Below, piece after piece: positions 7,784 through 21,958 of a stretch of 22,859 nt of DNA. Source of the stretch: Candidatus Thorarchaeota archaeon (GTDB lineage Archaea > Asgardarchaeota > Thorarchaeia > Thorarchaeales > Thorarchaeaceae); contig SDOA01000061.1 in assembly GCA_004524595.1 (NCBI GenBank), positions 1 to 22,859 on the forward strand, given 5' to 3'. The notes under the pieces were generated by a model. That model was not told the DNA's origin and did not search any database. It saw nothing but the letters and a program-made list of their open reading frames with translations. Position numbers and translations under genes: made by a program. Positions within the stretch are counted from its first letter, which is position 1. Each line of letters begins with the position of its first letter.

Positions 7784-8694
7784 TCATCCTCCTCCTCCGA
7801 ATTTATTCCAATTTTTCCAACCGGTGCAACATAGATAGTAAACTCATTCTTACCATCTACCCCAATCAGTTCATCAATTCCTTTCTGATTGTATGCAGCA
7901 ATGGCACATGTTCCTACTCTGATTGACTCACATGCAAGGTATAGATTCTGGCAGATGTGACCTGCTTCAATTGCGATATCTTTGTATGCAACGATGCTGT
8001 ATCGCCATTCAGATTTATATGGAATAACGGCCCAGATGAAGAAGATAGCTGATTTTCCACAGAATGTCTGGTCCCAACATAGACTTGATACTTTGTCTTG
8101 AATCTTAGAGTCAGTTTTTTTAATCAGGAGCAATCTGTGTTCTATTGGTAGATATCTGTAAATTCCAGAAGTTATTCCCTCCACCCAGTTTATTACCAGA
8201 TAGGTTTCGAATGGATGCCTTGCTCCTCCTGAAGGAACTGTACGTAGCGTCCATACCAGATTCTTGTCAACCTTTCTAACGCCCTGCGTACTCCACAAGA
8301 GAAACGAAACTTCTTCAAGAGTGAGAGGAGTATCTACAAACTTTCTACGACTTCTTCTCTTGTCTATTACTTCCCTCAGGGGCCGATTACCAGAGATGAA
8401 ATCCTCTGGTTTCACAAGATCAACAAATACTCCCTCTTTTAGAAATGGTTTCTCCAGAGGAGGTGGTGCAACTCCTTTTCGTTGATGTGGTTCCCACCAA
8501 TCTTCGTTAGGGGTCTCATCATAGTCATGAGCCTTCAGAAGATTGCGGCGTGTGTTTATGGTTTCTTCATATTTTGTCAATGAATACCAACTCTCAAACT
8601 GTCTACAATATGTTTTGAGAGCGAGAAAGACTGACCTATAAGACAAATCATCTGAGCCATTTGATATTATGTTGACACTCTCGTTAGTAATCAT
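7780..8694 (-). CDS. SagB-type FMN nitroreductase/dehydrogenase
   Basis: 304 residues. An N-terminal all-helical/linker part (1-100) precedes a SagB/ThcOx-like nitroreductase domain (about 104-298) with RRSRRKF at 113-119 (phosphate and FMN contacts), PSGGARHPFETYLV at 154-167, and the conserved helix near 232-265 (YKDIAIEAGHICQNLYLAC). Family members bind FMN; SagB enzymes oxidise azolines to azoles in peptide toxins, but many stand-alone members have unknown substrates. No YcaO cyclodehydratase or precursor peptide is seen nearby, so an azole peptide pathway is not supported. The ATG lies inside the end of the giant gene (11-nt overlap), implying coupled expression. Confidence 0.75.
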   Translation of the reverse strand: MITNESVNIISNGSDDLSYRSVFLALKTYCRQFESWYSLTKYEETINTRRNLLKAHDYDETPNEDWWEPHQRKGVAPPPLEKPFLKEGVFVDLVKPEDFISGNRPLREVIDKRRSRRKFVDTPLTLEEVSFLLWSTQGVRKVDKNLVWTLRTVPSGGARHPFETYLVINWVEGITSGIYRYLPIEHRLLLIKKTDSKIQDKVSSLCWDQTFCGKSAIFFIWAVIPYKSEWRYSIVAYKDIAIEAGHICQNLYLACESIRVGTCAIAAYNQKGIDELIGVDGKNEFTIYVAPVGKIGINSEEEDE

Positions 8695-11600
8695 TTCTAA
8701 GGTTCATTTTATCAAGCATTGACTCCAGTTCTTCGAAAAATCTCTCTATGTTAATAATATTGTACTTAGACAACTCTCCCTCCTCTAATTGATGGTAAAA
8801 TCCATTTAAAATTGCTTCACGACTCTCATTTTTTTCTATAACAAACGTAGTCTTGTGGATAATCCGCGTCATTAATTCCTCTCCTTCGTAAAGAGTTATC
8901 ATGATTTCTCTGCCATTCCGAGTCAACAAGAGCTGACATGGTGGCCCGGACTCTGAATATCCTCGATTTGATAATATCATCATAATTTGCTGGTCAATTT
9001 CATTCAGATTTAAAATAGAATCTGTGGGAATCTCACGTGTGATACTCCTAAAAAACTCATTTTTTACCTCATCAAGACTCAGACCGGGATTCATTGTAAA
9101 GTGAAATACTTTGTTCTTCCAATAAATCCCGGAAATAGATGATACTCCTATCCACTCAACAGTGTTATCTTGTATGACAAAGTCAATTATCCACCTCTCA
9201 TCATCCCTGAAGTACGTTCCCGGTACCAGCTTCTTCAGATGCATATCTTTTTCGTGCAAGAGTCTTCGAATCCAGTCGTCCTCATGGTAGACATAGAATT
9301 CTCTCTCATTTGATTTGTACTCAAGAATTAGTTGAATATCGTATACTTGCTTTCCAATACTAATCTTGCCTGTGGCTAATTGACCATAGATCTCTTTCCC
9401 ACTCATGGAAGTAACAAACTGCGGCAGAGATATACCACTATTCGCGGACTTAACAGTCCAGCAATTACCATGTAAGATATCAGTATTCAATACTATTGGA
9501 CATTTTTCCCGGTCATGACCTAATACAAGATATAGTACTTGTTCTTCCTCGGTTTCAAATAACTCTTCAACTATCTGTGGTAGTTGCTTACCTACTTCCC
9601 TTGGTGCATTTGTTTCAACATAAGGACGAACAAGATCAAAGTCACCATACTCGATATCCATGAAGGGATTCCAGGTCAATAAGCTTCCATCGTCTGCTCT
9701 TAGAGTGCTGTTTTCTGAAAATGGTAATCTCAGAATAGTAATCAAATCGGGAACACTCTGCACCCCAACAAGATGTATCAGTTCATCATCTATGATGTTT
9801 TGAAGTAGTATCCTGCAACCTATATCATCTCTCTCAAGAGAAACTTTCACATCCTTTTTCATTTCTTTCAGGTGGACTAACTGAAAAAATACTGCTTGCT
9901 TGACATCATCGATGAAGCTCTTTGGTAACATGCGTTGAGATACAATTGTTTCTTTGGTTACTAGCTGATCCTCACGAATCCCAACTATTGAACCAATTTG
10001 CCCTACTTTCTTAGAAAATATCTCAATGACACTTTGAGGAGTCCATTTTTCTGTATCGTAATCCCATTGCCAGAGTTCCTGTTTATTATCTATAATCCTG
10101 ATGAGGATTTCACTAAAATCAAGTGAATCTATCTCTTCTATTATTGATTGTAATCGGTCATTATCTCTCTCACTCCACAGAAACCCTGATTGGTCTCTCT
10201 TACAACACTCTGAGAAATGTCCCACTAGTAACCCTGTTGATATCTTTGGGTCTTGGATTACTAATAGCTCATCCTGTTCTTCGGGGGTCACCTTTGTGAA
10301 GATACGACCAAATACCAATCTCTCATCAGGTTTTGATTTTATCAATTCAGGACTATACTGTGACACTCGTTTCTTTGTCTTGAGTGAGTATTGGCTACGA
10401 TACAATCGCTGAGAATTGATGGTATTTGCTGCCATCTGTACCGAAGATCTACCACTCTTTCCATCCAAAGGTCTGAACTTGATCCTCTCAAGCAGACTGG
10501 GTTCCTTACCACTTTCAACCAGTACCTTACTTTTAATCCCAATTTGACCCGGTGTTTGGTGATACCTGTCTTTCATCTCAAGGAGTAATTTGTACACAGA
10601 CCTCTCATCACCATCTCCAAGATCTATTTTTGTTAACAATTCAGGAAGCCATGGTATGAGATCAAATGCGAGAACTTTCATTCGCTCTCTGACATCTGCT
10701 TCTGGTACAGACTTCTTCAGGAGCGTTTCCAGATTTGCCTCAGTGAAGTCACCTCTGAACTTGCTCGACCATCCTGCAAGAGGAGGTACATTGACCAGCT
10801 CGGCAGTGAACCCTCTCTTCTCCTGCATGATAACGACTCTGATATCATCATAGGAAGGAGCAGTTGCAGTGTACGGCAAGATCCAGTCATCCGGCAGAAC
10901 CTCACTCTCAGGAGCCACCGGCACATTCCATAGTATCTTAGAGACCTGCCCATAGAATGGCGAGTTATTATAGAAGGGGATCAGGGTTCGAGTCAGATAG
11001 ACGCTGGAATTCTGTTCACTTGGCAGGGGGACATCAAACCACAGGACAGAGGCTTCAGACTGCTTCACGAGCTGGTTCACGAGTCGTACCTTGAGTTCTC
11101 TCAGCCTCTCATCATACGGTGAGGGAGTTGACCCAAGTATCCTGTCCCATCCACTGACTACTATCAAATCAGGTACGGTATCAAAGAGAATACTGACCTC
11201 ATTCTGCTCCTTGAACAGGAACTTCTGTATCTCTTCAAACATTCCATTCAGTTCAATCGAGTCGAAGATGTTTCTGACAGACTCATCATGGGCTCGAATC
11301 ACATCGACCAATCTCCTACTCCGAGGAAACAGACCGAGGCGGCTCTCCCTGAAACTTGGCTCTAGAAACTCATCAGCCAAATCAATCCACAGAGTCTTGG
11401 ACTTTCCTGTTCGTTCTCTCCGCTCCTTGATGAATTGGAATCCATGATGGTACTTGGCAATCCACGCTGCCGAGGCCCCACCCGAAGTAGCAGACTCAGC
11501 AGCAAGGTAGAGTATGAACCCCCTCGTGTCGTCAGTCTGTGCCTCAAGAGGATCCTGAACAGGGACGAATGGCGCAGGGACTGAGACCATTCGAGTCTCC

Positions 11601-13285
11601 TCTACGTTCTCCTGTTCATGGAGGATAATTGCTAAGCTGGGTGTGACCTGGTCCAGTGTGACAGTGTAGCAGGTCCGTGGTATTCTTCTCTCTGATTCCA
11701 TAGTCGACTCAAAGACCCCAATGATGAGGGACCGCACCAGTGAACGGATCAGCCGGATGTCATCACCGGCATCCACCAGCAGGGTCCCCCTCAGGATGGT
11801 CGGTGAGCTCTCGGCTCCCGTGGTCGTTTTGTATACTTTCGCCACAGCATCTGCATAGGCATTGACCTGCGTCAGTGTGTTCTCAGAGGGAGTCCCACCG
11901 ACAATCTGTGTCCATTCTTTTTCATCTAGAGTACTCTCGGAGATGATGAACTCGGGGATCTTCCGCAGGGGGAGACCGTGTTCTCTCCTTGACCATGAGT
12001 CCTTTGTCTGGTATCCCAGATCCCACATGAATCCCATCCTGGTCTTGATGTCCAAGACAAAGACAGGCAGCCAGAAGACATTGAGACCGTCTTCTGTCAC
12101 CACTCGTCTGAACAGAATCAGATCTATCCTCCCTCTTCCAAGGGCTGTATCGATGGGAATCTCGGAGCAGACAAGGTACCCGTCCTCTCCACCCAGTTCA
12201 TCTCCGAATCTGCTGGCACGTTCCACACTCCAGTGGCTTGGAAAGAGCCCGGTGATCTGCTGATGGACCTGGGTGCCTCGTTGTCCACTCAGTTCAAAGA
12301 GCCGCCTCCAGAAGTACCTGACATCCTGCTCCGTCAGGCATGGCGCCGGTTCTTCCTTCCCTGTACCTTCATCAATCACTGTGGAGATGATAGACCCGCC
12401 CTCAAGGATACGTTCCAACTCGTATAGCGCAATCGTATCAATCCCACGTTCCCGTGCCTCTCTCACCTGATCCCTGAAGAAGGAGGGATCGAAGGTGGGC
12501 TCCTCGTGCTCGAGGCCTGCCGTCACTGTGGGTGCATCCCCTGTGCGTACCGTGTAGTATCGGGCGATGTCGTCTTTGAGTTCTCGCAGGATTCTCACCG
12601 TGCCCTGCCTGAATCCATGTTTTCCATACCTGTTCTCAGAGTAGAGCCGCTCCAGGTAGGGTCGCGCCCTGAGGAGGAATAGATTGGTGTACCTTGCCGT
12701 GTCGTTCAGGGGCACATCATAGATGTAGCACCAGGTGTTCAGGATCTGGATATGTTGTCTGCAGACATCGATGAAGTCCAGCTCTGGAATATTATGGATG
12801 GGAACGACCTCGTGGCACAGAGAGGTGGCTGGATATCCGTATACCTCATGGAGACCGTGCAGAGGTTGTCGGTCAGGGAAGGGAAAGGTTGTCATGGCAA
12901 CATCCCGCAGGACCTTCCCGCCCACGTTGAAACGCTGGTTCAGGAAGCCCACCGACTTATCCGAACTCTTCACCCGGCGGGTCTCGGTATTACCGTAGGC
13001 TGCGCCGCGCTCGAACAGCATCTGGAGACCGTTCTTCCTGATGTTCTTCTCTGCCTCGATGATGGGCGTGAGGGTGGTGGTGCCCCGCTGTTTCGCCTTC
13101 CTGTATCTCTTGTTGGCTCTGGTCAGCACCCGCAGGGAGGCCTCGTACAGGTGGGCGGTGGTCCTGTTCCTCATGGTCTTCTGGAGGTAGACCGCAGTAG
13201 CCAGGGCTGTCTTCAGGGTCCGCGTCAGCACAATGTTGGGGTGCACTGGGATGGTCTTTCGTGGTCTTCCTCTTTTCCCAGTCAT
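8684..13285 (-). CDS. Giant multidomain protein with RecB-like PD-(D/E)xK nuclease core
   Basis: 1533 residues, start ATG 13285 with AGGTGGG just upstream. The N-terminus KRGRPRK (4-10) is an AT-hook-like basic motif, followed by basic helical sequence to about 110. Residues about 355-480 show a PD-(D/E)xK pattern: E375, GRIDLILF with D388, VFVLDIKTR with D412-x-K414, then QVNAYA (Q473, Y477), the Q-x3-Y motif of RecB/Cas4-like nucleases. Residues about 585-755 alternate strands and helices like a RecA-type ATPase (LWIDLADEF 632-640, DLIVVSGWDRIL 706-717), but no lysine-bearing Walker A is visible. The last 550 residues are unrecognised. No signal peptide or membrane helix. It heads a coupled trio with SagB-like and GNAT genes. 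The 5' half is GC-rich, the 3' half AT-rich. Likely a DNA-acting protein (inference), family unknown to me. Confidence 0.7.
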   Translation of the reverse strand: MTGKRGRPRKTIPVHPNIVLTRTLKTALATAVYLQKTMRNRTTAHLYEASLRVLTRANKRYRKAKQRGTTTLTPIIEAEKNIRKNGLQMLFERGAAYGNTETRRVKSSDKSVGFLNQRFNVGGKVLRDVAMTTFPFPDRQPLHGLHEVYGYPATSLCHEVVPIHNIPELDFIDVCRQHIQILNTWCYIYDVPLNDTARYTNLFLLRARPYLERLYSENRYGKHGFRQGTVRILRELKDDIARYYTVRTGDAPTVTAGLEHEEPTFDPSFFRDQVREARERGIDTIALYELERILEGGSIISTVIDEGTGKEEPAPCLTEQDVRYFWRRLFELSGQRGTQVHQQITGLFPSHWSVERASRFGDELGGEDGYLVCSEIPIDTALGRGRIDLILFRRVVTEDGLNVFWLPVFVLDIKTRMGFMWDLGYQTKDSWSRREHGLPLRKIPEFIISESTLDEKEWTQIVGGTPSENTLTQVNAYADAVAKVYKTTTGAESSPTILRGTLLVDAGDDIRLIRSLVRSLIIGVFESTMESERRIPRTCYTVTLDQVTPSLAIILHEQENVEETRMVSVPAPFVPVQDPLEAQTDDTRGFILYLAAESATSGGASAAWIAKYHHGFQFIKERRERTGKSKTLWIDLADEFLEPSFRESRLGLFPRSRRLVDVIRAHDESVRNIFDSIELNGMFEEIQKFLFKEQNEVSILFDTVPDLIVVSGWDRILGSTPSPYDERLRELKVRLVNQLVKQSEASVLWFDVPLPSEQNSSVYLTRTLIPFYNNSPFYGQVSKILWNVPVAPESEVLPDDWILPYTATAPSYDDIRVVIMQEKRGFTAELVNVPPLAGWSSKFRGDFTEANLETLLKKSVPEADVRERMKVLAFDLIPWLPELLTKIDLGDGDERSVYKLLLEMKDRYHQTPGQIGIKSKVLVESGKEPSLLERIKFRPLDGKSGRSSVQMAANTINSQRLYRSQYSLKTKKRVSQYSPELIKSKPDERLVFGRIFTKVTPEEQDELLVIQDPKISTGLLVGHFSECCKRDQSGFLWSERDNDRLQSIIEEIDSLDFSEILIRIIDNKQELWQWDYDTEKWTPQSVIEIFSKKVGQIGSIVGIREDQLVTKETIVSQRMLPKSFIDDVKQAVFFQLVHLKEMKKDVKVSLERDDIGCRILLQNIIDDELIHLVGVQSVPDLITILRLPFSENSTLRADDGSLLTWNPFMDIEYGDFDLVRPYVETNAPREVGKQLPQIVEELFETEEEQVLYLVLGHDREKCPIVLNTDILHGNCWTVKSANSGISLPQFVTSMSGKEIYGQLATGKISIGKQVYDIQLILEYKSNEREFYVYHEDDWIRRLLHEKDMHLKKLVPGTYFRDDERWIIDFVIQDNTVEWIGVSSISGIYWKNKVFHFTMNPGLSLDEVKNEFFRSITREIPTDSILNLNEIDQQIMMILSNRGYSESGPPCQLLLTRNGREIMITLYEGEELMTRIIHKTTFVIEKNESREAILNGFYHQLEEGELSKYNIINIERFFEELESMLDKMNLRNDY

Positions 13286-13328
13286 TATTTCCCACCTATC
13301 TCAGGGATTATCTTTAATTTTTGAGAGT

Positions 13329-13350
13329 ATATTAGATAATCATCTAATAT
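13329..13350. promoter_or_regulatory. 9-bp inverted repeat upstream of the giant gene
   Basis: ATATTAGAT and ATCTAATAT, perfect complements, are separated by AATC. The centre lies about 54 bp before the giant gene's start codon, where an operator or upstream promoter element would lie. TTAGATAAT occurs again at 13394-13402, which supports a repeated binding site over a chance palindrome. Confidence 0.4.
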
Positions 13351-13423
13351 TTAATTCTGCTGGAAAATGGATTTAGATGGAGTAAAATATTAGTTAGATA
13401 ATGTTTTATTCAAATTGCTTAAT

Positions 13424-13440
13424 AAGTTTATAACTAATAG
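13424..13440 (+). repeat. 17-bp direct repeat, copy 1
   Basis: AAGTTTATAACTAATAG, identical to 13520-13536 and 96 bp upstream of it. It contains a TATA-like TTTATAA. It may be a duplicated promoter element or mark a duplicated end of the TnpB element. Confidence 0.7.
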
Positions 13441-13455
13441 TAATAACTATTGTAC

Positions 13456-13498
13456 GAGTTAATTACTCCTTCTTTGGACAAAGAGGGGAGTGAACTCA
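13456..13498. other. Long imperfect hairpin upstream of tnpB
   Basis: Arms pair in three blocks: GAGTT/AACTC, ACTCC/GGAGT and CTTTG/CAAAG around a GA loop. It is flanked by a 6-bp hairpin (AATAGT/ACTATT, 13436-13451) and a 5-bp hairpin (CTGAC/GTCAG, 13503-13519). Clustered hairpins near a tnpB start resemble subterminal structures of IS200/IS605-type ends. Confidence 0.45.
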
Positions 13499-13519
13499 AC
13501 TGCTGACTGAAACGGTCAG

Positions 13520-13536
13520 AAGTTTATAACTAATAG
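13520..13536 (+). promoter_or_regulatory. 17-bp direct repeat, copy 2, likely tnpB TATA element
   Basis: Second identical copy of the 17-mer at 13424-13440. Its TTTATAA lies about 20 nt before ATG 13546, so a transcript starting there would be leaderless or nearly so. Confidence 0.45.
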
Positions 13537-13539
13537 GCG

Positions 13540-15195
13540 ATGATAATGGGTCGTTCGAAAGGAGTTACAATAACAGTAAAAGTTCCTGTTGCTTGGGATG
13601 AAATGACCAAACACAAAAAACAGAGACTTAGACAGATTGTAGGCCAAGACACCCGTGTCATCCGTTCTTTTTTGGGAATAATCGAACAACATGAGAGTGA
13701 GCTACTATCTGGTCGCTACAAGACACGAATTGATGATGCAGCCCTTGATCATTTAACAATCACTGCAATACATGTGACATCTAAATATCCACAACGCCTT
13801 GAAGTTCTCCATGACATGAAGGAGAGATATCCACATTGTTCTTCTGGAGAACTTATTGAATGTCGAAGAACAGCAATTTCAATGTACGAGAGCTATTTGG
13901 CACTAAGAAAGAGAAAAAGGAGTGGAGTGTCCCGCCCGTGTGAATCCATCAATTCTGGAAGAATTCCTAGATGGATTTATTCTCCAAAATTCAAACTGAC
14001 TAAATCCACATCATCAACAATCCATTGGTGGTTGGACCTACAAGATTCTTTTGACACTACTCCTATGAAAAAATCTGTACATGGCAGGCTTCGTATCCCT
14101 CTTAAAATGTGTCAATTTCACATTAACCAAATCGAAAGAGGAAAGATCAAGGCTCTTCAAATCATTAATGATAGAAAAGGAAAGTGGTGGATTCATTTTG
14201 CTGTCAGACTTGATCAGGAGTCTGTATCTATTGAAAACAATCTTCCCCCTGCAGTATTAGGAATCGATCTAGGAATAAAAAAGGCTGCATGTACTGCACT
14301 AATAACACCTGAAAAAGTTCGAGAAACTAGGTACTTCTTCCAGCAGAGTAAAGCCAAGTCCATCGAAAAATATGACGACCTTGTGGCAGAGCTTCAGAGA
14401 GAAATGGAATCTCGTCGAAAAAGGCATCAACCTTGTGATAGCATTATCGTGAAGTTGAAGCAGTTAAAGTCAAAGCGCGAAAATATCTCAAAGGAATATG
14501 ACCTTATCCTTCTTCGAGAACTCATTGATTACATAATCAAGCTCTCTGAAAAATACACTCTTTTTGTAGCTCTTGGTAGACTGAAATATATTCGAAATAA
14601 AGCTGGTCGAGAAAGCAAATCTCCTCTTCAATTTCGAAAGATGATTAATTCGTGGTCTTTTGCAAGGATTACCAATAGTTTGAAGCATCAGCTCTCCCAA
14701 CTTGGGTGGGCTGTTGATGGAAAAAAGGCACGTTTCAAGATAGTTTCAGAAGCTTGGACATCATCATTATGTTGGAAGTGTGGCTTAAAAGGAAAACGTC
14801 CCAAACAGAACCACTTTATCTGTTCGTCATGTGGTCACCAGACCAATGCAGACAGGAACGGCGCAATCAATATCGCTGCGCGTTTAATTATGCTCACGGA
14901 TTCATTGCATTCTGTGAGAGGACGAGGAAAGTGGGTGGACTCTGTAAACACAGGGAAGAACCCACAGCTGATGTCCTTACTCCTAAAGAGGAGTCATGTA
15001 TCAGACCCCAAGGAGTCCGTGGCTGATCACTTTGTCCAATTGGATCTTCTCAGCTTTGGCGACGAATCTGAGAAGAGTGATAATGACCCCGCCGTGGAAA
15101 GAACTGTGGAAAGGCCTTCTGTCTGCGGAAGTGATACTCCGCTAGAAGCACAGAAGAAAGAAACCAGAACCTTAGGAGGGACCGTGTCCCGATGA
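13540..15195 (+). CDS. tnpB: TnpB RNA-guided nuclease homologue (IS1341/IS605 OrfB type), rearranged RuvC site
   Basis: 551 residues; ATG 13540 or in-frame ATG 13546. RuvC-I is GIDLGIKK with D243. At the RuvC-II position the usual catalytic Glu is G346 (LFVALGRLKYIR), but E404 in IVSEAWTSS lies just before the zinc site, as in the rearranged-site TnpBs of archaea and in Fanzors. The zinc ribbon is C411-C414 and C428-C431; RuvC-III is D438 in NADRNGAINIA. The catalytic set therefore looks complete (D243, E404, D438). The C-terminal about 100 residues are polar, and their DNA is hairpin-rich, as expected if the guide-RNA scaffold overlaps the 3' end of the gene. No tnpA is present. It lies divergent from the giant gene and 210 bp before the tRNA. 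Confidence 0.85.
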   Translation: MIMGRSKGVTITVKVPVAWDEMTKHKKQRLRQIVGQDTRVIRSFLGIIEQHESELLSGRYKTRIDDAALDHLTITAIHVTSKYPQRLEVLHDMKERYPHCSSGELIECRRTAISMYESYLALRKRKRSGVSRPCESINSGRIPRWIYSPKFKLTKSTSSTIHWWLDLQDSFDTTPMKKSVHGRLRIPLKMCQFHINQIERGKIKALQIINDRKGKWWIHFAVRLDQESVSIENNLPPAVLGIDLGIKKAACTALITPEKVRETRYFFQQSKAKSIEKYDDLVAELQREMESRRKRHQPCDSIIVKLKQLKSKRENISKEYDLILLRELIDYIIKLSEKYTLFVALGRLKYIRNKAGRESKSPLQFRKMINSWSFARITNSLKHQLSQLGWAVDGKKARFKIVSEAWTSSLCWKCGLKGKRPKQNHFICSSCGHQTNADRNGAINIAARLIMLTDSLHSVRGRGKWVDSVNTGKNPQLMSLLLKRSHVSDPKESVADHFVQLDLLSFGDESEKSDNDPAVERTVERPSVCGSDTPLEAQKKETRTLGGTVSR

Positions 15196-15236
15196 TTATG
15201 GTTAATGTCTTGACTAACCTTTGGGTGGTGCCAAAG
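14931..15236 (+). ncRNA. Candidate omega RNA (reRNA) region overlapping the tnpB 3' end
   Basis: Successive stem-loops on the plus strand: GTGGGT/ACCCAC (14931-14965) enclosing CTGT/ACAG (14942-14953); GCGGA/TCCGC (15125-15142); GGGAC/GTCCC (15178-15190, just before the tnpB stop); GGTTA/TAACC (15200-15219); CTTTGG/CCAAAG (15219-15236). TnpB guide RNAs are made from exactly this part of their locus, with the guide taken from DNA beyond the element end. The true ends cannot be fixed without relatives. Confidence 0.4.
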
Positions 15237-15372
15237 AATGATGGTGACATCAGGTTAAGAAATGGTGGAACACAGAAATTTCTTGCAGTTGTTGTTCACT
15301 CAACTATGACTAGAGATAGGTCAAGAGCTACATCCCGAATACGGACATCTTTTGATGATACTAGAGTAATCC

Positions 15373-15382
15373 TTTTAACATA
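15373..15382 (+). promoter_or_regulatory. TATA-like box of the tRNA-Tyr gene
   Basis: TTTTAACATA is centred about 29 nt upstream of the first base of the tRNA, the usual archaeal spacing. The 210-nt stretch between tnpB and the tRNA otherwise holds only hairpins near the tnpB stop and no convincing gene; the 63-residue ORF there shows no recognisable protein features. Confidence 0.45.
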
Positions 15383-15428
15383 ACAACGTTGGAAAAAATC
15401 CAAACCGGAGCGTAGCTCAACTTGGCAG

Positions 15429-15458
15429 TCTGTTGTACTATCTGTCCGACAGGTCATG
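15429..15458 (+). other. Non-canonical tRNA intron in the D arm (between positions 22 and 23)
   Basis: 30 nt. A bulge-helix-bulge fits exactly: central helix TGGC (15424-15426 plus the T before) with GTCA (15453-15456), bulge AGT cut as AG|T, bulge TGA cut as TG|A, and an intron stem CTGT/ACAG. Splicing restores the D-stem GCTC/GAGC, which is otherwise split. Confidence 0.8.
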
Positions 15459-15473
15459 AGCTATGGACTGTAG

Positions 15474-15504
15474 AGAGCGGCTGTTGTGATGGCTGGTCAC
15501 AGTT
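15474..15504 (+). other. Canonical tRNA intron at 37/38
   Basis: 31 nt. The bulge-helix-bulge is textbook: central helix CTGT (15468-15471) with ACAG (15499-15502), bulge AGA cut AG|A, bulge TTA cut TT|A, flanked by the anticodon stem ATGGA/TCCAT. The intron interior forms a further imperfect stem. Confidence 0.85.
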
Positions 15505-15522
15505 ATCCATCGGTTGCCGGTT

Positions 15523-15545
15523 CAAATCCGGCCGCTCCGACCATC
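15523..15545 (+). repeat. tRNA 3'-end repeat, copy A (inside the tRNA gene)
   Basis: The reference copy: CAAATCCGG through CCGACCATC, spanning T-loop, T-stem, acceptor strand and CCA plus two bases. It is followed by a pyrimidine-rich tract, as are the other three copies at 16551, 17775 and 19101. Confidence 0.85.
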
Positions 15546-15575
15546 TTTTCTTAAACAAACTGCACAGAGTATCTT

Positions 15576-16466
15576 CTATTTCTTCTGTCCGATTGTGATG
15601 CTACGACTAACTATCTCCTGTTCATGGATATGAGAGAGTTGTTCTTTATTCGCATCTTCAAGCATTCTAAAGTAATCGAAGAGAATCTGATATGCTTCAT
15701 TGATTTTGGAGGATTCCAATCCTGATTCAAGAAGAGTTTGCGTAGTGACCACTCGTTGATCTTCAAATAGTTCTCGTCTTCTTTTTATCCACTTTTTTCG
15801 TTCCCTAAAATCGAACCTTGCATCTGAGAGTGTGAATACCGAATACAAGCCATGACATCTGATGTTTTCTAAACCGACTTTTTCGAAGAAATCTGGGTAT
15901 GAATAGTAGAAGGGATTACTTCTCTCAATTTTACCAAAAGATTCTGCTCTTTTTTTGGACATGATAATACTGTACTGCCACAGAGTATCAAAAGCTTCTC
16001 CTACTGATTTATCAGGTACAAAGTGTCGAGAACCAAGAGCGGGTTCGATACAGATAACATATCCTTCTTTTCGAACTGCTTGCTTCATTTTTTCAATTGC
16101 GATTAATGGCTTTGGAAGGTTGTGAATAACAATGTGTGAAATTGCAGCATCAAATTCATCAAAAAAGTCAATCTCTTCAAGTGGGATATCTACAATATTG
16201 ATACTTGGGAACTTGCGAGAAAGAGATTTCCGTAGATTAAGATCAGGTTCAAGGCATGTGATTCTAGCACTTGGATAGATAATTTGTAGTTTCCCTGTGA
16301 AGAAACCACTACCTGATCCGACCTCTAGGACCTGTATTTTTTCTTCAACAAATGGAAGCCAATTTCTGAACATGGCCATAGCATCAGAATCATATTCAAA
16401 ATGACGTCCAATATCTATCTCATTAGCTGACTGAATCTTACTCCAATTGAAGGGATATGCAGACAA
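15576..16466 (-). CDS. Class I SAM-dependent methyltransferase
   Basis: 296 residues. Motif I VLEVGSGSG (46-54) binds S-adenosylmethionine; the acidic end of strand 2 is CLEPD (71-75); post-motif DIPLEEIDF and motif IV-like FDAAISHIVIHNLPKP follow at about 97-120. The C-terminal part (about 180-296) is helical, charged and specific to this protein, presumably for substrate recognition. Nothing points to a particular substrate. It is convergent with the tRNA-Tyr gene (32 bp apart) and divergent from the flavoprotein gene. It is the only gene between tRNA 3'-end copies A and B. The stop is TAG. Confidence 0.75.
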   Translation of the reverse strand: MSAYPFNWSKIQSANEIDIGRHFEYDSDAMAMFRNWLPFVEEKIQVLEVGSGSGFFTGKLQIIYPSARITCLEPDLNLRKSLSRKFPSINIVDIPLEEIDFFDEFDAAISHIVIHNLPKPLIAIEKMKQAVRKEGYVICIEPALGSRHFVPDKSVGEAFDTLWQYSIIMSKKRAESFGKIERSNPFYYSYPDFFEKVGLENIRCHGLYSVFTLSDARFDFRERKKWIKRRRELFEDQRVVTTQTLLESGLESSKINEAYQILFDYFRMLEDANKEQLSHIHEQEIVSRSITIGQKK

Positions 16467-16779
16467 ATTGAAACCTCTCTCTCAATGGTTCAATAGGTCA
16501 GCAATAAGCATTCTTCCAAAATCTGTTACTGATTTGTATGTAAATTAAAACAAATCCGGCCATCCCGACCATTTCTTTTGTTTCATAATATCAAGCACTA
16601 CACTACTTTTTTTCGGACATCGTATTATCCATATATGGAAATAGGTCAAAATTCGTCACTAGGCCAGATAATAGTATGTCCAGACCATCTTCTTTATCTA
16701 ATTATTAATTATAGTTAATATAACAGGTTCAAAAATATAGAACACATTTAATGTATTCTATTATGAAGGTGAATATCAT
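16467..16779. promoter_or_regulatory. Divergent intergenic region with tRNA-end copy B and a 12-bp palindrome
   Basis: 313 nt without a gene. It holds tRNA-end copy B (16551-16573), a perfect palindrome TCCATATATGGA (16628-16639), and very AT-rich sequence (16696-16765) that should contain the promoter of the flavoprotein gene, e.g. AAATATAG near 16733-16740. AAGGTGA at about 16766-16772 is the ribosome site for TTG 16780. No other structure noted. Confidence 0.5.
16551..16573 (+). repeat. tRNA 3'-end repeat, copy B
   Basis: Matches copy A at 19 of the first 22 positions: CAAATCCGGCC, then three differing bases, then CCGACCAT, again followed by a T-rich tract. No other part of a tRNA is present upstream, so it is a fragment only. 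Confidence 0.75.
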
Positions 16780-17715
16780 TTGACTGGAAATAATACGGAT
16801 TTTGACGTAGCAGTGATCGGAGGAGGGCCTGCAGGACTTTCTGCAGGGATCATAGCAGCCTACAAGGGGCTCAAGGCTGCAGTATTTGAAGGAGGTACAT
16901 GGGGTGGTCTACTCTCCACTATCTATCCACACAAATATGTATTCAATTATCCTGGAACTCCAAGAGTGATGGCAACACACCTAGTAGCGGAATGGGTTCG
17001 CCAAGCTGCTGATCTCGGTGTCAACCTGATTAAGGAGAGAGTCACACAAATTAGTAAGGAGCGAGTTGTAACTACAACTGAGCGAACCTATACTGCAAAA
17101 GTTATCATCATCGCAGCAGGAATGCGTCCTAATACACTTGGGATACCTGGTGAGGTCGAATTTTCAAGAAATGATAAGGGTGTATTTCCATATGTGACTG
17201 AACCAGAGTTATTCAGAGATAAGAGAGTACTTGTGGTTGGAGGTGGCGATACCGCTCTTGATGCAGTTATAGATGCTCGAAGAGTGACTGATAAGATTTG
17301 GATTGCTCATCGTAAGGATGAATTCAGAGCTGCCGAGACCGTTGTGGATGAGATAGTCAATCAAGGAATGGCTGAGATTCTTTACAACACAGAACTTGTT
17401 GCAATTAGGGGCAATTCAGAGGTCGAGGAAGTAACGCTTTACAACAATCAGACAGAGGAAAAGTGGGAACTTGCTGTTGATTGTGTCATAATAGCAGTTG
17501 GGTTGGTTCCTAACACCGAAGTCTTTGATCATTTAGGAGTAGAGATGAATCAGCGGTTCATTCGAGTTGATAGTGAACTGCGAACGAATATCGAAGGAAT
17601 CTTTGCTGCTGGAGATATTATCTCTATATACCAGTTAGCTTCGGTTGCTGCAGCTCAGGGTGCGCTTGCTGCACATAATGCTTACAAATACATAAGAAAG
17701 CCCTATTGGGCTTAG
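16780..17715 (+). CDS. Thioredoxin-reductase-fold flavoprotein lacking the CxxC (ferredoxin-NAD(P)+ reductase-like)
   Basis: 311 residues. FAD motif GGGPAG 14-19, NAD(P) motif GGGDTA 154-159 followed by HRKDEFRA (177-184, the pattern that contacts the NADPH 2'-phosphate in thioredoxin reductases), and C-terminal FAD motif AAGD. Where thioredoxin reductases carry CATC, this protein reads KGVFPYVTE, so it cannot reduce thioredoxin by the usual dithiol route. YumC-type ferredoxin-NADP reductases share this fold and this lack; that is the best guess, with NAD(P)H oxidase or regulatory roles as alternatives. Start TTG 16780 is chosen because AAGGTGA lies 8-9 nt upstream and no nearer ATG is in frame. 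It is the only gene between tRNA-end copies B and C. Confidence 0.8.
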   Translation: MTGNNTDFDVAVIGGGPAGLSAGIIAAYKGLKAAVFEGGTWGGLLSTIYPHKYVFNYPGTPRVMATHLVAEWVRQAADLGVNLIKERVTQISKERVVTTTERTYTAKVIIIAAGMRPNTLGIPGEVEFSRNDKGVFPYVTEPELFRDKRVLVVGGGDTALDAVIDARRVTDKIWIAHRKDEFRAAETVVDEIVNQGMAEILYNTELVAIRGNSEVEEVTLYNNQTEEKWELAVDCVIIAVGLVPNTEVFDHLGVEMNQRFIRVDSELRTNIEGIFAAGDIISIYQLASVAAAQGALAAHNAYKYIRKPYWA

Positions 17716-17774
17716 TCCTATTCTGGTCTCTCACTATTTCGGACGTTAGTCTATATTAAAATGCCTCTAACCGG

Positions 17775-17790
17775 TTCAAATCCGACCATC
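17775..17790 (+). repeat. tRNA 3'-end repeat, copy C (internally deleted)
   Basis: The similarity begins at 17771 (CCGGTTCAAATCCG) and continues ACCATC. Relative to copy A exactly nine bases are missing, between the two TCCG repeats of the acceptor/T-stem, a typical slippage deletion. It lies in the 3' untranslated region of the flavoprotein gene. Confidence 0.75.
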
Positions 17791-17797
17791 CTTTTTT
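17791..17797 (+). terminator. Oligo-T terminator after the flavoprotein gene
   Basis: CTTTTTT directly follows tRNA-end copy C and lies 76 nt after the stop codon. The tract may originally have been the tRNA terminator and now ends this mRNA. Confidence 0.45.
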
Positions 17798-17859
17798 CCT
17801 ATGCATTAAGAACTACCAAAACACAAATTCACATTAAGATAGCCCGAATACCATCTCAA

Positions 17860-18810
17860 CTACGAATCCATATTGAGTGTGATTCCAAGAGAACGAACGA
17901 GTTCCTTGTATCGATTTCGGATTGTGACTTCTGTAACTCTCGAAGCCATGGCTATCTCTCTCTGAGTACGCCTATCCTCCTCAAGTATTCCAGCTATGTA
18001 AAGTGCAGCTCCTGCAATCCCACCAGGCGATTTTCCTATGGTTATGTATCTCTCCTTTGCCTGCTGAATTATTTCTGTGGCTTTTTTCACAGTTCTTCCA
18101 TCAAGCATGAGATCTGAAGATAACCTTGGTATCAAATCCTTTGCAGAAGGAAGTGGTACATTAACTTCTATTTTGGAAACAATTAAGCGAACCGCATGAC
18201 CGATCTTTTTCCTACCCACATCAGTTTCTGTTGCAATCTCATCAAGTGACCTTGGAATCCTATGAATCCGGCAAGCAAGATAGATAGATGCTGCAACTAC
18301 TGATTCGATGCTTCTTCCTCTCACAATTCTCTTCATTAGAGCCTTTCTATAGATCAAAGCTGCACTTTCTCGGACTTCGTAAGGTATTCCAAGTTGTGAA
18401 GAGAGTCTCTGCATTTCACTCATTGCAATACTAAGATTTCGATGTTCTGAATTATGGAGTTTACTTCTAATGTGCCACTTTCGCATTCTATACATGGCTG
18501 CACGCGTGGTGCTTGTGAGTGCCCTACCACTTGCATCCTTGTTCCGCCAATCAATTGTTGTCGAAAGGCCTCTGTCCGCTCTAGTGAGAGTCATTGGTGC
18601 TCCAACTCTGGCTCTTGCATCTCTCTCTTCTGTAGTGAATGCTCTCCATTCTGGTCCACTATCTGTAGTATGCTCAGATCTTACAAGTCCACATGAAGCA
18701 CAGGTATTCTCTCCACGAGCATAATCCTCCGTGAATAACGTCCCTCCACAGTTAATACAAACACCTGTTTTTTTAACAATCTTTTCCTTCATTCTAGGTG
18801 AATCTGTCAT
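17860..18810 (-). CDS. tfb: Transcription initiation factor B (TFB, TFIIB homologue)
   Basis: 316 residues, the normal TFB length. The zinc ribbon uses C18, C21, C37 and C40. The B-reader/linker region includes EWRAFTTEER and the conserved TLTRADRGLSTTIDWRNKD (74-92). Two cyclin-like repeats (about 120-205 and 215-308) bind TBP-DNA and the BRE; the helix-turn-helix of repeat 2 includes RRTQREIAMASRVTEVTIRNRYKEL. TFB recruits RNA polymerase at TATA promoters. ATG 18810 has AGGTGAG 7-13 nt upstream. Archaea often carry several TFBs; this one looks fully intact. It stands alone between tRNA-end copies C and D, and a short ORF overlaps its start. Confidence 0.95.
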   Translation of the reverse strand: MTDSPRMKEKIVKKTGVCINCGGTLFTEDYARGENTCASCGLVRSEHTTDSGPEWRAFTTEERDARARVGAPMTLTRADRGLSTTIDWRNKDASGRALTSTTRAAMYRMRKWHIRSKLHNSEHRNLSIAMSEMQRLSSQLGIPYEVRESAALIYRKALMKRIVRGRSIESVVAASIYLACRIHRIPRSLDEIATETDVGRKKIGHAVRLIVSKIEVNVPLPSAKDLIPRLSSDLMLDGRTVKKATEIIQQAKERYITIGKSPGGIAGAALYIAGILEEDRRTQREIAMASRVTEVTIRNRYKELVRSLGITLNMDS

Positions 18811-18889
18811 ATTCTCTCACCTTAGCAGATTCCTTTCTACTTCCTTCCACAACGCTTGCATCATCTGCTACATCTTCTATCGTTTCCAT
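18794..18889 (-). CDS. Possible 31-codon upstream ORF overlapping the tfb start
   Basis: ATG 18889 to TAG 18794 encodes a highly charged 31-residue peptide (begins METIEDVADD) in a different frame from tfb and runs across the tfb start codon. A TATA-like CTTAAATC lies 20-odd nt before its ATG. It could modulate tfb translation or be chance. The rest of the 289-nt gap to the next gene (18890-19099) shows no gene. Confidence 0.25.
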   Translation of the reverse strand: METIEDVADDASVVEGSRKESAKVREYDRFT

Positions 18890-19099
18890 TAGCTTTGAAT
18901 TGGATTTAAGTGGAAAATTTCGGTCTATTGCTGAAAAACCCTATCTTGTATTGTACCATTCAACGAAACAGAACTCAATTGAGTAATGTAAGAAATAACC
19001 GAAGATACTTTCTACTTAGTTTCTCAATCGTTACTTTATACAAATCTTCCCTAATAAAGAAGAGGTCAGAACTAATATTGAAAGAAATAAATTCTTAGC

Positions 19100-19660
19100 T
19101 CAAATCCGACCACTCCGACCATCTCTATCTTTTTCCAGAGAATGAAGAAATGCTTCAATTTCTTTCTGTCCTCTTAGAATGAACACATTCTTTGAAACGT
19201 GTAGTTTTTCCAACAACTTGAAAATCGCTGGTTTCCGAGTGCGTGGATAGTTCCAGATCCATTTTATAAAATCCCAGTCGATCTTCTCAGGGCAGTCCTC
19301 GGTTAGATCCGGCCTAGTCTCTCCTCGAAATCGTAGGAATCGAACAAATATGCGCAGGTACGATAGTCTTCTTGGAATATTGACGAAGATGATGGTGTCT
19401 GCTGCGGAGGCACGAAGCTTAAGTGTAGATGTGTAATTGCCATCCATGATCCATGAGTCTGGACTAATCAACTCCTTGACCCTGGCTTGCCATTCATCTT
19501 CAGGAGTATACACCCAGTTTGGTTTCCAATAATACTGGTCCAAGTGAATAATGGGGATTCTGAGAATTCTACCAAGTCTTTCACCGAGAGTAGATTTTCC
19601 GGAGCCACTAGGTCCAAGAATTAGCACGCGTTTCATCATCAGAAGTAAGAGATAAAACAT
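19100..19660 (-). CDS. Small P-loop kinase (FlaR/adenylate-kinase-like)
   Basis: 186 residues from the first ATG; the true start is more likely one of the Met pair at residues 8-9 (19639/19636), giving the compact MKRVLILG start usual for the family. Walker A GPSGSGKST is at 16-24, followed by the family signature IIHLDQYYWKPNW (37-49), WIMDGNY (70-76) and a basic lid with RFRGETRPDL. This matches the group annotated as topology-modulation protein FlaR-like or AAA-family nucleotide kinases, whose real substrates are unknown. The last codons (about DGRSGRI and TGA) are read from tRNA-end copy D, so the native C-terminus may have been replaced. Confidence 0.75.
   Translation of the reverse strand: MFYLLLLMMKRVLILGPSGSGKSTLGERLGRILRIPIIHLDQYYWKPNWVYTPEDEWQARVKELISPDSWIMDGNYTSTLKLRASAADTIIFVNIPRRLSYLRIFVRFLRFRGETRPDLTEDCPEKIDWDFIKWIWNYPRTRKPAIFKLLEKLHVSKNVFILRGQKEIEAFLHSLEKDRDGRSGRI
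19101..19123 (+). repeat. tRNA 3'-end repeat, copy D (inside the kinase gene 3' end)
   Basis: Matches copy A at 21 of 23 positions (CAAATCCGACCACTCCGACCATC; the two differences are G to A). Same orientation as copies A-C, but it lies antisense to, and within, the last codons of the minus-strand kinase gene. Confidence 0.8.
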
Positions 19661-20974: not shown

Positions 20975-21958
20975 TCACGGTACGTTGTCTGGAAGGTGAA
21001 TGATGAAACTACACTCATCATCACCCCTGAGTACCGATTTCATCAGCTCTACTTCCAACGGCTGATTCAGTGCTGCCTCCCAAGGCTGCTTTGTGAACCC
21101 TCCACTACAATAGCAGAATTCAGCTGATACTTCCTCGCCCTTCAAGATTGACTCTCTTGCCCACGCACAGTGACAGGCGTAGTACCGTTTCATCCTCTCA
21201 TCAGTTGCATCAAGATACTCTTGGGTCATGTATGGGATCTTTGTATGATAAATGGTGTTTTCTCTTCTTTCACCAACTAGGACATCTGGACGACCCTTTA
21301 CAAAATTCACAACATCATCAGTGATGTATTGATTGAAGAAGAGAGTTCCATTGTCCCTGTGTTTCTCCAGTTCTGCAATACCCTCTTCTCTCTGTCTGCG
21401 TAAATACTCATCAATGCTACCCGCTTTCAAGAATTTCTCTCGTTCTCCCTTCCTAAAATCCCGAGGTAATCCATGAGCAACATCAGCGAGTACCTTTTTA
21501 CATTCCTCTGGAGTTAAGACTTTGTTCATTTTCTCCAACACTTGACGAGTGACATCTATTTTCTGTGATGAGGGTAATCCAAGGGGTGGTAAATCTTCTT
21601 TTGGTAATATTTCATCTCGTTTTGTTTCACCAATATGCTCTCCTAATCGTTCGTTCAGAACATTCATCACTTCTGCTCCATCAATGAGCTCAAGAACTGC
21701 TAAATAGAAATCCATGTTCTTGATGAAGTTTCCATATCTGCTCAAAGCAACAAGGCTGGTATAGGTGTTCAGTTTCTCTTCAATCAATACTTTCGTAAAA
21801 TTGTTGACCTCTGTCGCAGATGCTGTTTCAAGGGTCTTTCCAAAATGCTTCAGATACTCCTCAAACTTTTCAACCATCTTTGTAGTTTCGATGATCTCTT
21901 CCTCGGGGATTGGTTGCACCCTATCTATCAAATACTGTCGATATCCTTCTCTATCCAT
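20975..21958 (-). CDS. DUF6144-like Cys-rich protein
   Basis: 327 residues. The N-terminal 100 residues are helical and reminiscent of a SAM-like DNA-binding or scaffold bundle. The C-terminal third has the signature YYACHCAWARES (259-270) and FCYCSGGFTKQPWE (281-294), then LEVELMKSVLRGDDECSFIIHLP, giving C262, C264, C282, C284 and C316. This matches what I recall of DUF6144 proteins, related in pattern to V4R-like ligand or metal sensors. Metal binding is inferred; function unknown. It is convergent with fprA (10 nt apart). The stop is TGA. Confidence 0.65.
   Translation of the reverse strand: MDREGYRQYLIDRVQPIPEEEIIETTKMVEKFEEYLKHFGKTLETASATEVNNFTKVLIEEKLNTYTSLVALSRYGNFIKNMDFYLAVLELIDGAEVMNVLNERLGEHIGETKRDEILPKEDLPPLGLPSSQKIDVTRQVLEKMNKVLTPEECKKVLADVAHGLPRDFRKGEREKFLKAGSIDEYLRRQREEGIAELEKHRDNGTLFFNQYITDDVVNFVKGRPDVLVGERRENTIYHTKIPYMTQEYLDATDERMKRYYACHCAWARESILKGEEVSAEFCYCSGGFTKQPWEAALNQPLEVELMKSVLRGDDECSFIIHLPDNVP

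What the first reader, a model, noticed from the sequence alone, without database searches (positions are those of the whole stretch)
15523..19123. Four directly repeated tRNA 3' ends delimiting single-gene blocks
The 3' end of the tRNA-Tyr gene (T-loop to CCA plus T-rich tail) recurs at 16551 (19/22 identical), 17775 (a 9-base deletion between TCCG repeats) and 19101 (21/23), always on the plus strand. The intervals hold exactly one gene each: methyltransferase, CxxC-less flavoprotein, TFB. tRNA 3' ends are classic attachment sites, and graded decay away from the intact tRNA fits serial insertions leaving att scars. Alternatives are remnants of a decayed tRNA array, or reuse of the tRNA end as a terminator or RNA-processing signal. 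No integrase is visible, so the mechanism would have to act in trans or be lost.
Basis: partly seen in the sequence, partly recalled or inferred. Interest (0 to 1): 0.7.

Follow-up and report, generated by a model that had tools for sequence, protein, structure and literature searches.

The report
Gene insertions stacked behind tRNA-Tyr
In a Thorarchaeota archaeon, genes seem to have been added one after another at the end of a transfer-RNA gene, each addition leaving a copy of the tRNA's tail as a scar, and sister genomes still show some of the earlier stages.

Summary
The window is Thorarchaeota DNA. tRNA-Tyr (15406-15543, two introns) is followed on the same strand by three partial copies of its 3' end: 16551-16571, 17771-17791 (9-nt internal deletion) and 19100-19121; 2000 random sequences gave no match as good as the best two. 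In sister genomes a junction now marked by a copy is the junction with the intact tRNA itself: copy 4/ADK in G030, copy 3/TFB in G029 and G021; copy 2/flavoprotein in G026 is weaker. Three of 28 regions read are empty. Blocks change order between genomes. One scar in G043 carries a T-loop intron that the intact tRNA-Tyr of G042 still has, so it comes from the gene, not from mature tRNA. Copies start mainly at the anticodon loop or T arm, as tRNA-directed tyrosine recombinases would leave, but no recombinase lies in the blocks tested and four genomes with copies show none, so the enzyme is inferred. Such tRNA-repeat 'additive islands' are published for bacteria; my searches found no report for Thorarchaeia. 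New member of a known kind.

The parts
15406..15543 (+). tRNA-Tyr (GTA), introns 15429-15458 and 15474-15504; target of the insertions
15505..15543 (+). copy 1: 3' exon of the intact tRNA-Tyr (ATCC...CCA)
15576..16466 (-). block 1: methyltransferase-domain protein, 296 aa
16551..16571 (+). copy 2: tRNA-Tyr 3' end (T loop to CCA)
16780..17715 (+). block 2: thioredoxin-reductase-like flavoprotein, 311 aa
   Evidence: homologues at other places of the locus in G033, G026, G036
17771..17791 (+). copy 3: tRNA-Tyr T arm joined to ACCA, 9-nt internal deletion
   Evidence: aligns to the intact tRNA 3' end in G029 and G021
17860..18810 (-). block 3: TFB, 316 aa
19100..19121 (+). copy 4: tRNA-Tyr 3' end; its other strand encodes the last residues of the ADK-like ORF
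   Evidence: aligns to the intact tRNA 3' end in G030
19100..19660 (-). block 4: ADK-like P-loop protein ('DNA topology modulation protein', NF005994), 186 aa
19774..20964 (+). FprA-like flavoprotein, also in the variable region (no copy found between it and block 4)
20975..21958 (-). conserved right flank R1; next to tRNA-Tyr in empty sites

Best explanation
A tRNA-anchored additive island. Small DNA units, each with one or a few genes and a tRNA-Tyr 3' end, inserted behind the 3' end of tRNA-Tyr. Each insertion leaves a whole tRNA and pushes earlier blocks outward, and a copy of the tRNA end marks the old junction (supported by comparison for copies 3 and 4, weaker for copy 2). The simplest order in this lineage is ADK, TFB, flavoprotein, methyltransferase (inferred). 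Blocks have also been lost, exchanged or reinserted between copies (inferred from changed order and internal presence/absence). The recombination was most likely site-specific, by a tyrosine recombinase cutting at tRNA loops and supplied in trans or since lost (inferred from where copies begin; enzyme not found; I give this step about 0.5). The confidence below is for serial insertion at the tRNA.
For: Former junctions: window 19100-19319 aligns from copy 4 into ADK with G030 from its intact tRNA into ADK (73%); window 17771-19638 aligns from copy 3 through TFB and ADK with G029 from its intact tRNA (75%). Empty sites in G010, G012, G027. In G043 the tRNA is inverted relative to both flanks, and its F18 block and copy still lie behind the tRNA 3' end. 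Order change: G001 has TFB before block A, G003 the reverse, the TFB block 95.9% identical over 1288 bp from inside one copy to 13-15 nt past the next; G031 lacks TFB plus one copy between the same neighbours. Of 23 copies measured without gaps, 10 begin at about tRNA position 30-35, 9 at 47-57, 3 at 40-42, 1 at 7. A copy in G043 carries a 30-nt T-loop insert, 24 of 30 identical to one in G042's intact tRNA-Tyr, while G043's tRNA lacks it: displaced DNA, not an RNA copy. In G033 a 182-bp start of a block is duplicated (1 mismatch) behind the tRNA and joined to a copy at a T-loop-like sequence. 3 of 57 tRNAs examined in two other genomes carry a same-strand downstream copy. Cleavage at the anticodon-loop border is reported for IntSSV1 and loop borders are extrapolated for others; some archaeal integrases have low specificity (PMC8371274 passages).
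Against: No recombinase was recognised in the block genes scanned. PF00589 is found in 18 of 47 genomes, never on a contig with tRNA-Tyr or a Tyr copy except single-contig G035, over 600 kb from its copies; contigs are short, so this is weak. PF16795 0 of 47, PF00239 14 of 47. G002, G033, G036 and G046 have copies but neither PF00589 nor PF00239 (completeness not told). In 22 of 36 integrase neighbourhoods read, a tRNA showed in 1 and a T-arm/CCA pattern in 1. T-arm starts are spread (47-57), and T-loop inserts in some copies mean that some starts may not be cut sites. One search left out copies with gaps (window 17771, L001 4654 and 6625, L095 16507, L097 270) and the traces in L116 and L124. 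Many copies are shared by descent, not independent. No reads or circles were seen.
Confidence: 0.85

Rival explanations
1. Homologous or microhomology-driven insertion of DNA circles at the tRNA with no site-specific recombinase: any circle holding a broken-off tRNA 3' end could recombine into the tRNA and leave the same picture.
For: No recombinase in the blocks scanned or detectable in four genomes with copies; copy lengths from about 20 to 70 nt and one nearly full-length copy in G023; the G033 breakpoint has short homology to the T loop.
Against: 10 of 23 copies start within six positions at the anticodon loop, though not all are independent; 20-45 nt is short for homologous recombination (recalled).
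Confidence: 0.3
2. Independent integrations of ordinary larger integrative elements (viruses, plasmids) at tRNA-Tyr, each eroded to one or two genes.
For: tRNA 3' ends are standard att sites, SSV1 with a 44-bp core (PMC3293823 discussion part 1); Heimdall elements integrate at tRNAs (PMC8813620 passages).
Against: No integrase domain among the block genes scanned; two exact tRNA-Tyr 3' patterns found nothing in viral contigs; blocks are often about 1 kb with an open gene.
Confidence: 0.2
3. Remnants of a decayed tandem tRNA array.
For: One G023 copy covers about 70 of 77 nt.
Against: Copies with 44 of 44 and 45 of 45 identical 3' bases have no similarity upstream, so they were truncated from the start; empty sites show a single tRNA-Tyr there.
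Confidence: 0.03
4. The tRNA end is reused as a terminator or RNA-processing signal.
For: T-rich tails follow many copies; copies often lie close to gene 3' ends.
Against: Copies are on the tRNA strand, so antisense to neighbouring TFB, ADK and methyltransferase genes; several are badly decayed.
Confidence: 0.04

Closest known systems
Additive flexible genomic islands with tRNA direct repeats ('Ca. Actinomarinales' fGI1, PMC7771536; 'Ca. Methylopumilus' fGI-2, PMC10872708; passages)
   Same: [quoted passage not shown] islands vary among relatives.
   Different: Those are bacteria. Here Asgard archaea, mostly one-to-three-gene blocks, copies starting mainly in two tRNA zones, an intron-bearing target tRNA, and sister genomes that show which junction some scars were.
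SSV-type / pNOB8-type archaeal integration and gene capture at tRNA genes (PMC8371274 passages; PMC3293823 abstract and discussion part 1)
   Same: Core from a tRNA loop to the tRNA 3' end, whole tRNA on one side, partial copy on the other; intron changes linked to integration in Caldiarchaeum.
   Different: No integrase, whole or split, recognised in the blocks; PF16795 in 0 of 47 genomes.
Tycheposons (passages in PMC10872708; the original paper was not seen)
   Same: Cargo next to a tRNA, variable content.
   Different: Described there as 4-200 kb with a tyrosine recombinase; here blocks of about 0.3-4 kb and none recognised.
Integrons, archaeal ones enriched in Asgard (PMC9668308 passages)
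   Same: Small gene blocks each with one site, stacked at an anchor, order changes.
   Different: The site is a tRNA end; no intI match over cut-off in 47 genomes; genes face both ways. attC was not searched.

Membership tests
tRNA-anchored additive genomic island | Direct repeats of the tRNA 3' part at block ends, same strand | tested here: met
   Window copies; copies in 11 of 47 class genomes, weaker traces in G020 and G029
tRNA-anchored additive genomic island | Same chromosomal position with variable content among relatives, including empty sites | tested here: met
   tRNA-Tyr regions of 28 of 47 genomes read; 3 empty, the others filled or rearranged in different ways
tRNA-anchored additive genomic island | Growth next to the tRNA, old junctions displaced outward | tested here: met
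   G030, G029, G021 versus window; exceptions inside the array
tRNA-anchored additive genomic island | Foreign origin of the blocks | tested here: inconclusive
   Some block genes are closer than flanks (window-L111: FprA 92, ADK 80, R1 63), others not; genes differ in conservation and no trees were built
SSV-type integrated element | Split integrase at the borders | tested here: not met
   PF16795 in 0 of 47 genomes; control genomes: 3 of 14 ring, 1 over cut-off; none in the window block genes
Tyrosine-recombinase integrative element | Integrase gene within the element | tested here: not met
   None in the block genes scanned; not all block genes of all genomes were scanned; PF00589 places
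Tyrosine-recombinase integrative element | Copy core runs from a tRNA loop or arm to CCA | tested here: met
   19 of 23 gapless copies start at about 30-35 or 47-57
Integron | intI integrase | tested here: not met
   TIGR02249 over cut-off in 0 of 47, weak matches in 8
Integron | attC sites | not tested
   No attC model was run

The most novel reading that the evidence does not exclude
Thorarchaeia run a cassette system that uses tRNA 3' ends as both anchor and cassette site: gene-sized circles ending in a tRNA 3' half, moved by a trans-acting recombinase that recognises tRNA loops, stack behind tRNA-Tyr and other tRNAs and are shuffled like integron cassettes, carrying TFB variants, redox and defence genes, and swapping tRNA introns in and out as they land.
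Probability: 0.25. Interest if true: 0.75.

Novelty: new member of a known kind. Interest (0 to 1): 0.5.

Why it matters
Gene exchange in Asgard archaea bears on eukaryote origins, but how single genes enter their genomes is poorly known. This locus is a readable record: some scars name a former junction that a sister genome still shows. It says where to look for circles and for the recombinase, it puts a basal transcription factor gene (TFB) among the moving blocks, and it links insertions to tRNA intron changes.

Tried and rejected
Whole genome of the window: not held. Rfam over 15000-19400 at E up to 1: one match, below its gathering score, no tRNA. Resident integrases: 22 of 36 PF00589 places read; ARAGORN finds a tRNA in 1 and a T-arm/CCA pattern appears in 1, so no element with a tRNA att site was found. 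SSV-type integrase, serine recombinase, integron integrase. Viral att sites: two exact patterns in viral contigs gave 0. A 230-bp sequence recurring just before several copies looked like a cassette end; it appears to be a small-gene region that goes with a 49-aa Cys-rich gene (15 places in 12 of 47 genomes, some with no copy), so I dropped it as a recombination site. A pattern match in G042 first taken for a possible extra copy is the intact tRNA-Tyr with a T-loop insert; its real copy, decayed, lies behind F18. An origin of copies by reverse transcription of spliced tRNA (suggested by copies without the anticodon intron) is disfavoured by the G043 copy that keeps a T-loop insert. Papers: searches showed no report of this in Thorarchaeia; I saw listings, and passages of the papers cited.
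Full report
What is there. The window is Thorarchaeota: its TFB is closest to four Thorarchaeota MAG contigs at 74-80% identity. tRNA-Tyr lies at 15406-15543 with two introns. Three partial copies of its 3' end follow on the same strand at 16551, 17771 and 19100. The two ungapped ones are beyond chance (2 and 4 mismatches of 23; best of 2000 Markov sequences, 5).

The locus in relatives. A pattern search of 47 genomes of the class gave matches in 41, some of them other tRNAs with similar 3' ends. I read the tRNA-Tyr region of 28 of the 47. The left flank (ECF transporter genes, F16, GNAT2 or NITRO genes) and the right flank (R1 to R5, R1 being window 20975-21958) recur. In G010, G012 and G027 only 33, 13 and 23 bases separate the tRNA from R1: the empty site. 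Copies outside the tRNA occur in 11 of 47 genomes (G001, G002, G003, G023, G024, G031, G033, G035, G036, G046, and G042, decayed), the G043 copy makes a further case split by an insert, and G020 and G029 show weaker traces. In G035, a contig of 2.58 Mb, two copies lie far apart, one before F7-F10 and one before a 200-aa ORF that clusters with TFB; tRNA-Tyr was not among its 32 tRNA hits.

The scars are old tRNA junctions. Copy 4 with ADK in the window aligns without break to the intact tRNA with a shortened ADK in G030 (window 19100-19319, 73%). Copy 3 with TFB and ADK aligns to the intact tRNA with TFB and ADK in G029 (window 17771-19638, 75%; its tRNA has a full acceptor stem and a D-arm intron). 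G021 and G002 contig C86 also have TFB directly behind the tRNA. For copy 2 the partner is G026, where the flavoprotein follows a tRNA 3' end; that contig starts inside the tRNA and overlaps the tRNA contig by exactly 127 nt, an assembly break, so this case is weaker.

Blocks move. G001 reads TFB, copy, block A, copy, F7; G003 reads block A, copy, TFB, copy, F7-F10; G031 reads tRNA, block A, copy, F7-F10 without TFB, its flank proteins R1, R2, R4 and R5 being 88-98% identical to those of G003. The TFB block is 95.9% identical over 1288 bp between G001 and G003. Flavoprotein and FprA also change order: window, G026 and G033 have the flavoprotein first, G036 has FprA first. In G038, G039, G040 and G043 the tRNA is inverted relative to the flanks; in G043 the F18 block with its copy lies behind the tRNA on the other side. 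Block genes include TFB, an ADK-like protein, flavoproteins, a nitroreductase, octopine-dehydrogenase-like and B12-binding proteins, methyltransferases and, in G024, an Mrr-type restriction enzyme, a weakly NucS-like protein (below the Pfam cut-off) and a TIR protein.

Introns travel with the scars. G042's intact tRNA-Tyr has a 30-nt insert in the T loop as well as one after the anticodon. G043's tRNA lacks the T-loop insert, but the copy behind its F18 block has one at the same place, 24 of 30 identical. The simplest reading is that the old 3' half was displaced as DNA and the tRNA received a new one. Against a single rule: copies in G001, G002 C52 and G024 lack the anticodon intron that the tRNA beside them has, so either the intron came later or the crossover lay 3' of it.

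How it may work. One search measured 24 ungapped copies; one (L120) proved to be the tRNA itself. Of the other 23, 10 start at about 30-35, 9 at 47-57, 3 at 40-42 and 1 at 7; five gapped copies and the L116 and L124 traces were left out, and copies are not all independent. Loop-border cutting is reported for IntSSV1 and extrapolated for other archaeal integrases (PMC8371274 passages). In G033 a 182-bp duplicate of the start of the F18 block lies behind the tRNA, cut at GAGTACAAAACC and joined to GTTCAAATCC of a copy, as if a T-loop-like secondary site had been used. But no recombinase is at the locus: PF00589 in 18 of 47 genomes, PF16795 in 0, PF00239 in 14, integron integrase over cut-off in 0. 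A trans-acting or lost enzyme and a homology-based route both remain possible. My 0.85 is for serial insertion at the tRNA; about 0.5 for site-specific recombination as the route.

Not only tRNA-Tyr. In G035 and G010 I examined 57 of the 66 tRNA hits (32 of 32 and 25 of 34), within the stretches fetched (mostly 4 kb upstream to 10 kb downstream). Leaving out matches to other tRNA genes and to the Tyr copy at 2223155, three tRNAs have a copy, all same strand and downstream by 1.2-3.8 kb: a five-ORF block in G035 (Lrp and ABC genes by eye) and two single-gene blocks in G010. I saw no integrase in them by eye; they were not scanned.

Known or new. [quoted passage not shown] passages). I found no report for Thorarchaeia. 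So this is a new, unusually readable member of a known kind, in Asgard archaea.

Noticed in passing
window 15429-15458 and 15474-15504: tRNA-Tyr has two introns, one in the D arm; intron content varies among Thorarchaeia.
   Followed up: partly
L207 7724 region (G042), L124 9533-9562 and L097 266-292 (both oriented with the tRNA on +): T-loop inserts of 27-30 nt in an intact tRNA-Tyr and in two copies, at the same place; window copy 2 may have a 16-nt one. Possibly T-loop introns.
   Followed up: partly
window 19100-19121; L002 and L092 equivalents: The tRNA scar supplies the last codons of the ADK-like ORF on the opposite strand.
   Followed up: partly
window 8684-15195: A 1533-aa protein without Pfam match and a TnpB-like protein sit just upstream of tRNA-Tyr, likewise in G024 and G022; in G020 the pair lies downstream, between the tRNA and a partial copy.
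   Followed up: partly
L001 2503-3032 and others: A 49-aa Cys-rich protein gene with a conserved region beside it, found in several blocks and also elsewhere.
   Followed up: partly
L002 and L092 (both G002, AB_25): One MAG holds two versions of the locus, with an intron-less and an intron-bearing tRNA-Tyr: probably two strains.
   Followed up: no
L121, L122, L123, L124: In G038, G039, G040 and G043 the tRNA-Tyr is inverted relative to both flanks.
   Followed up: partly
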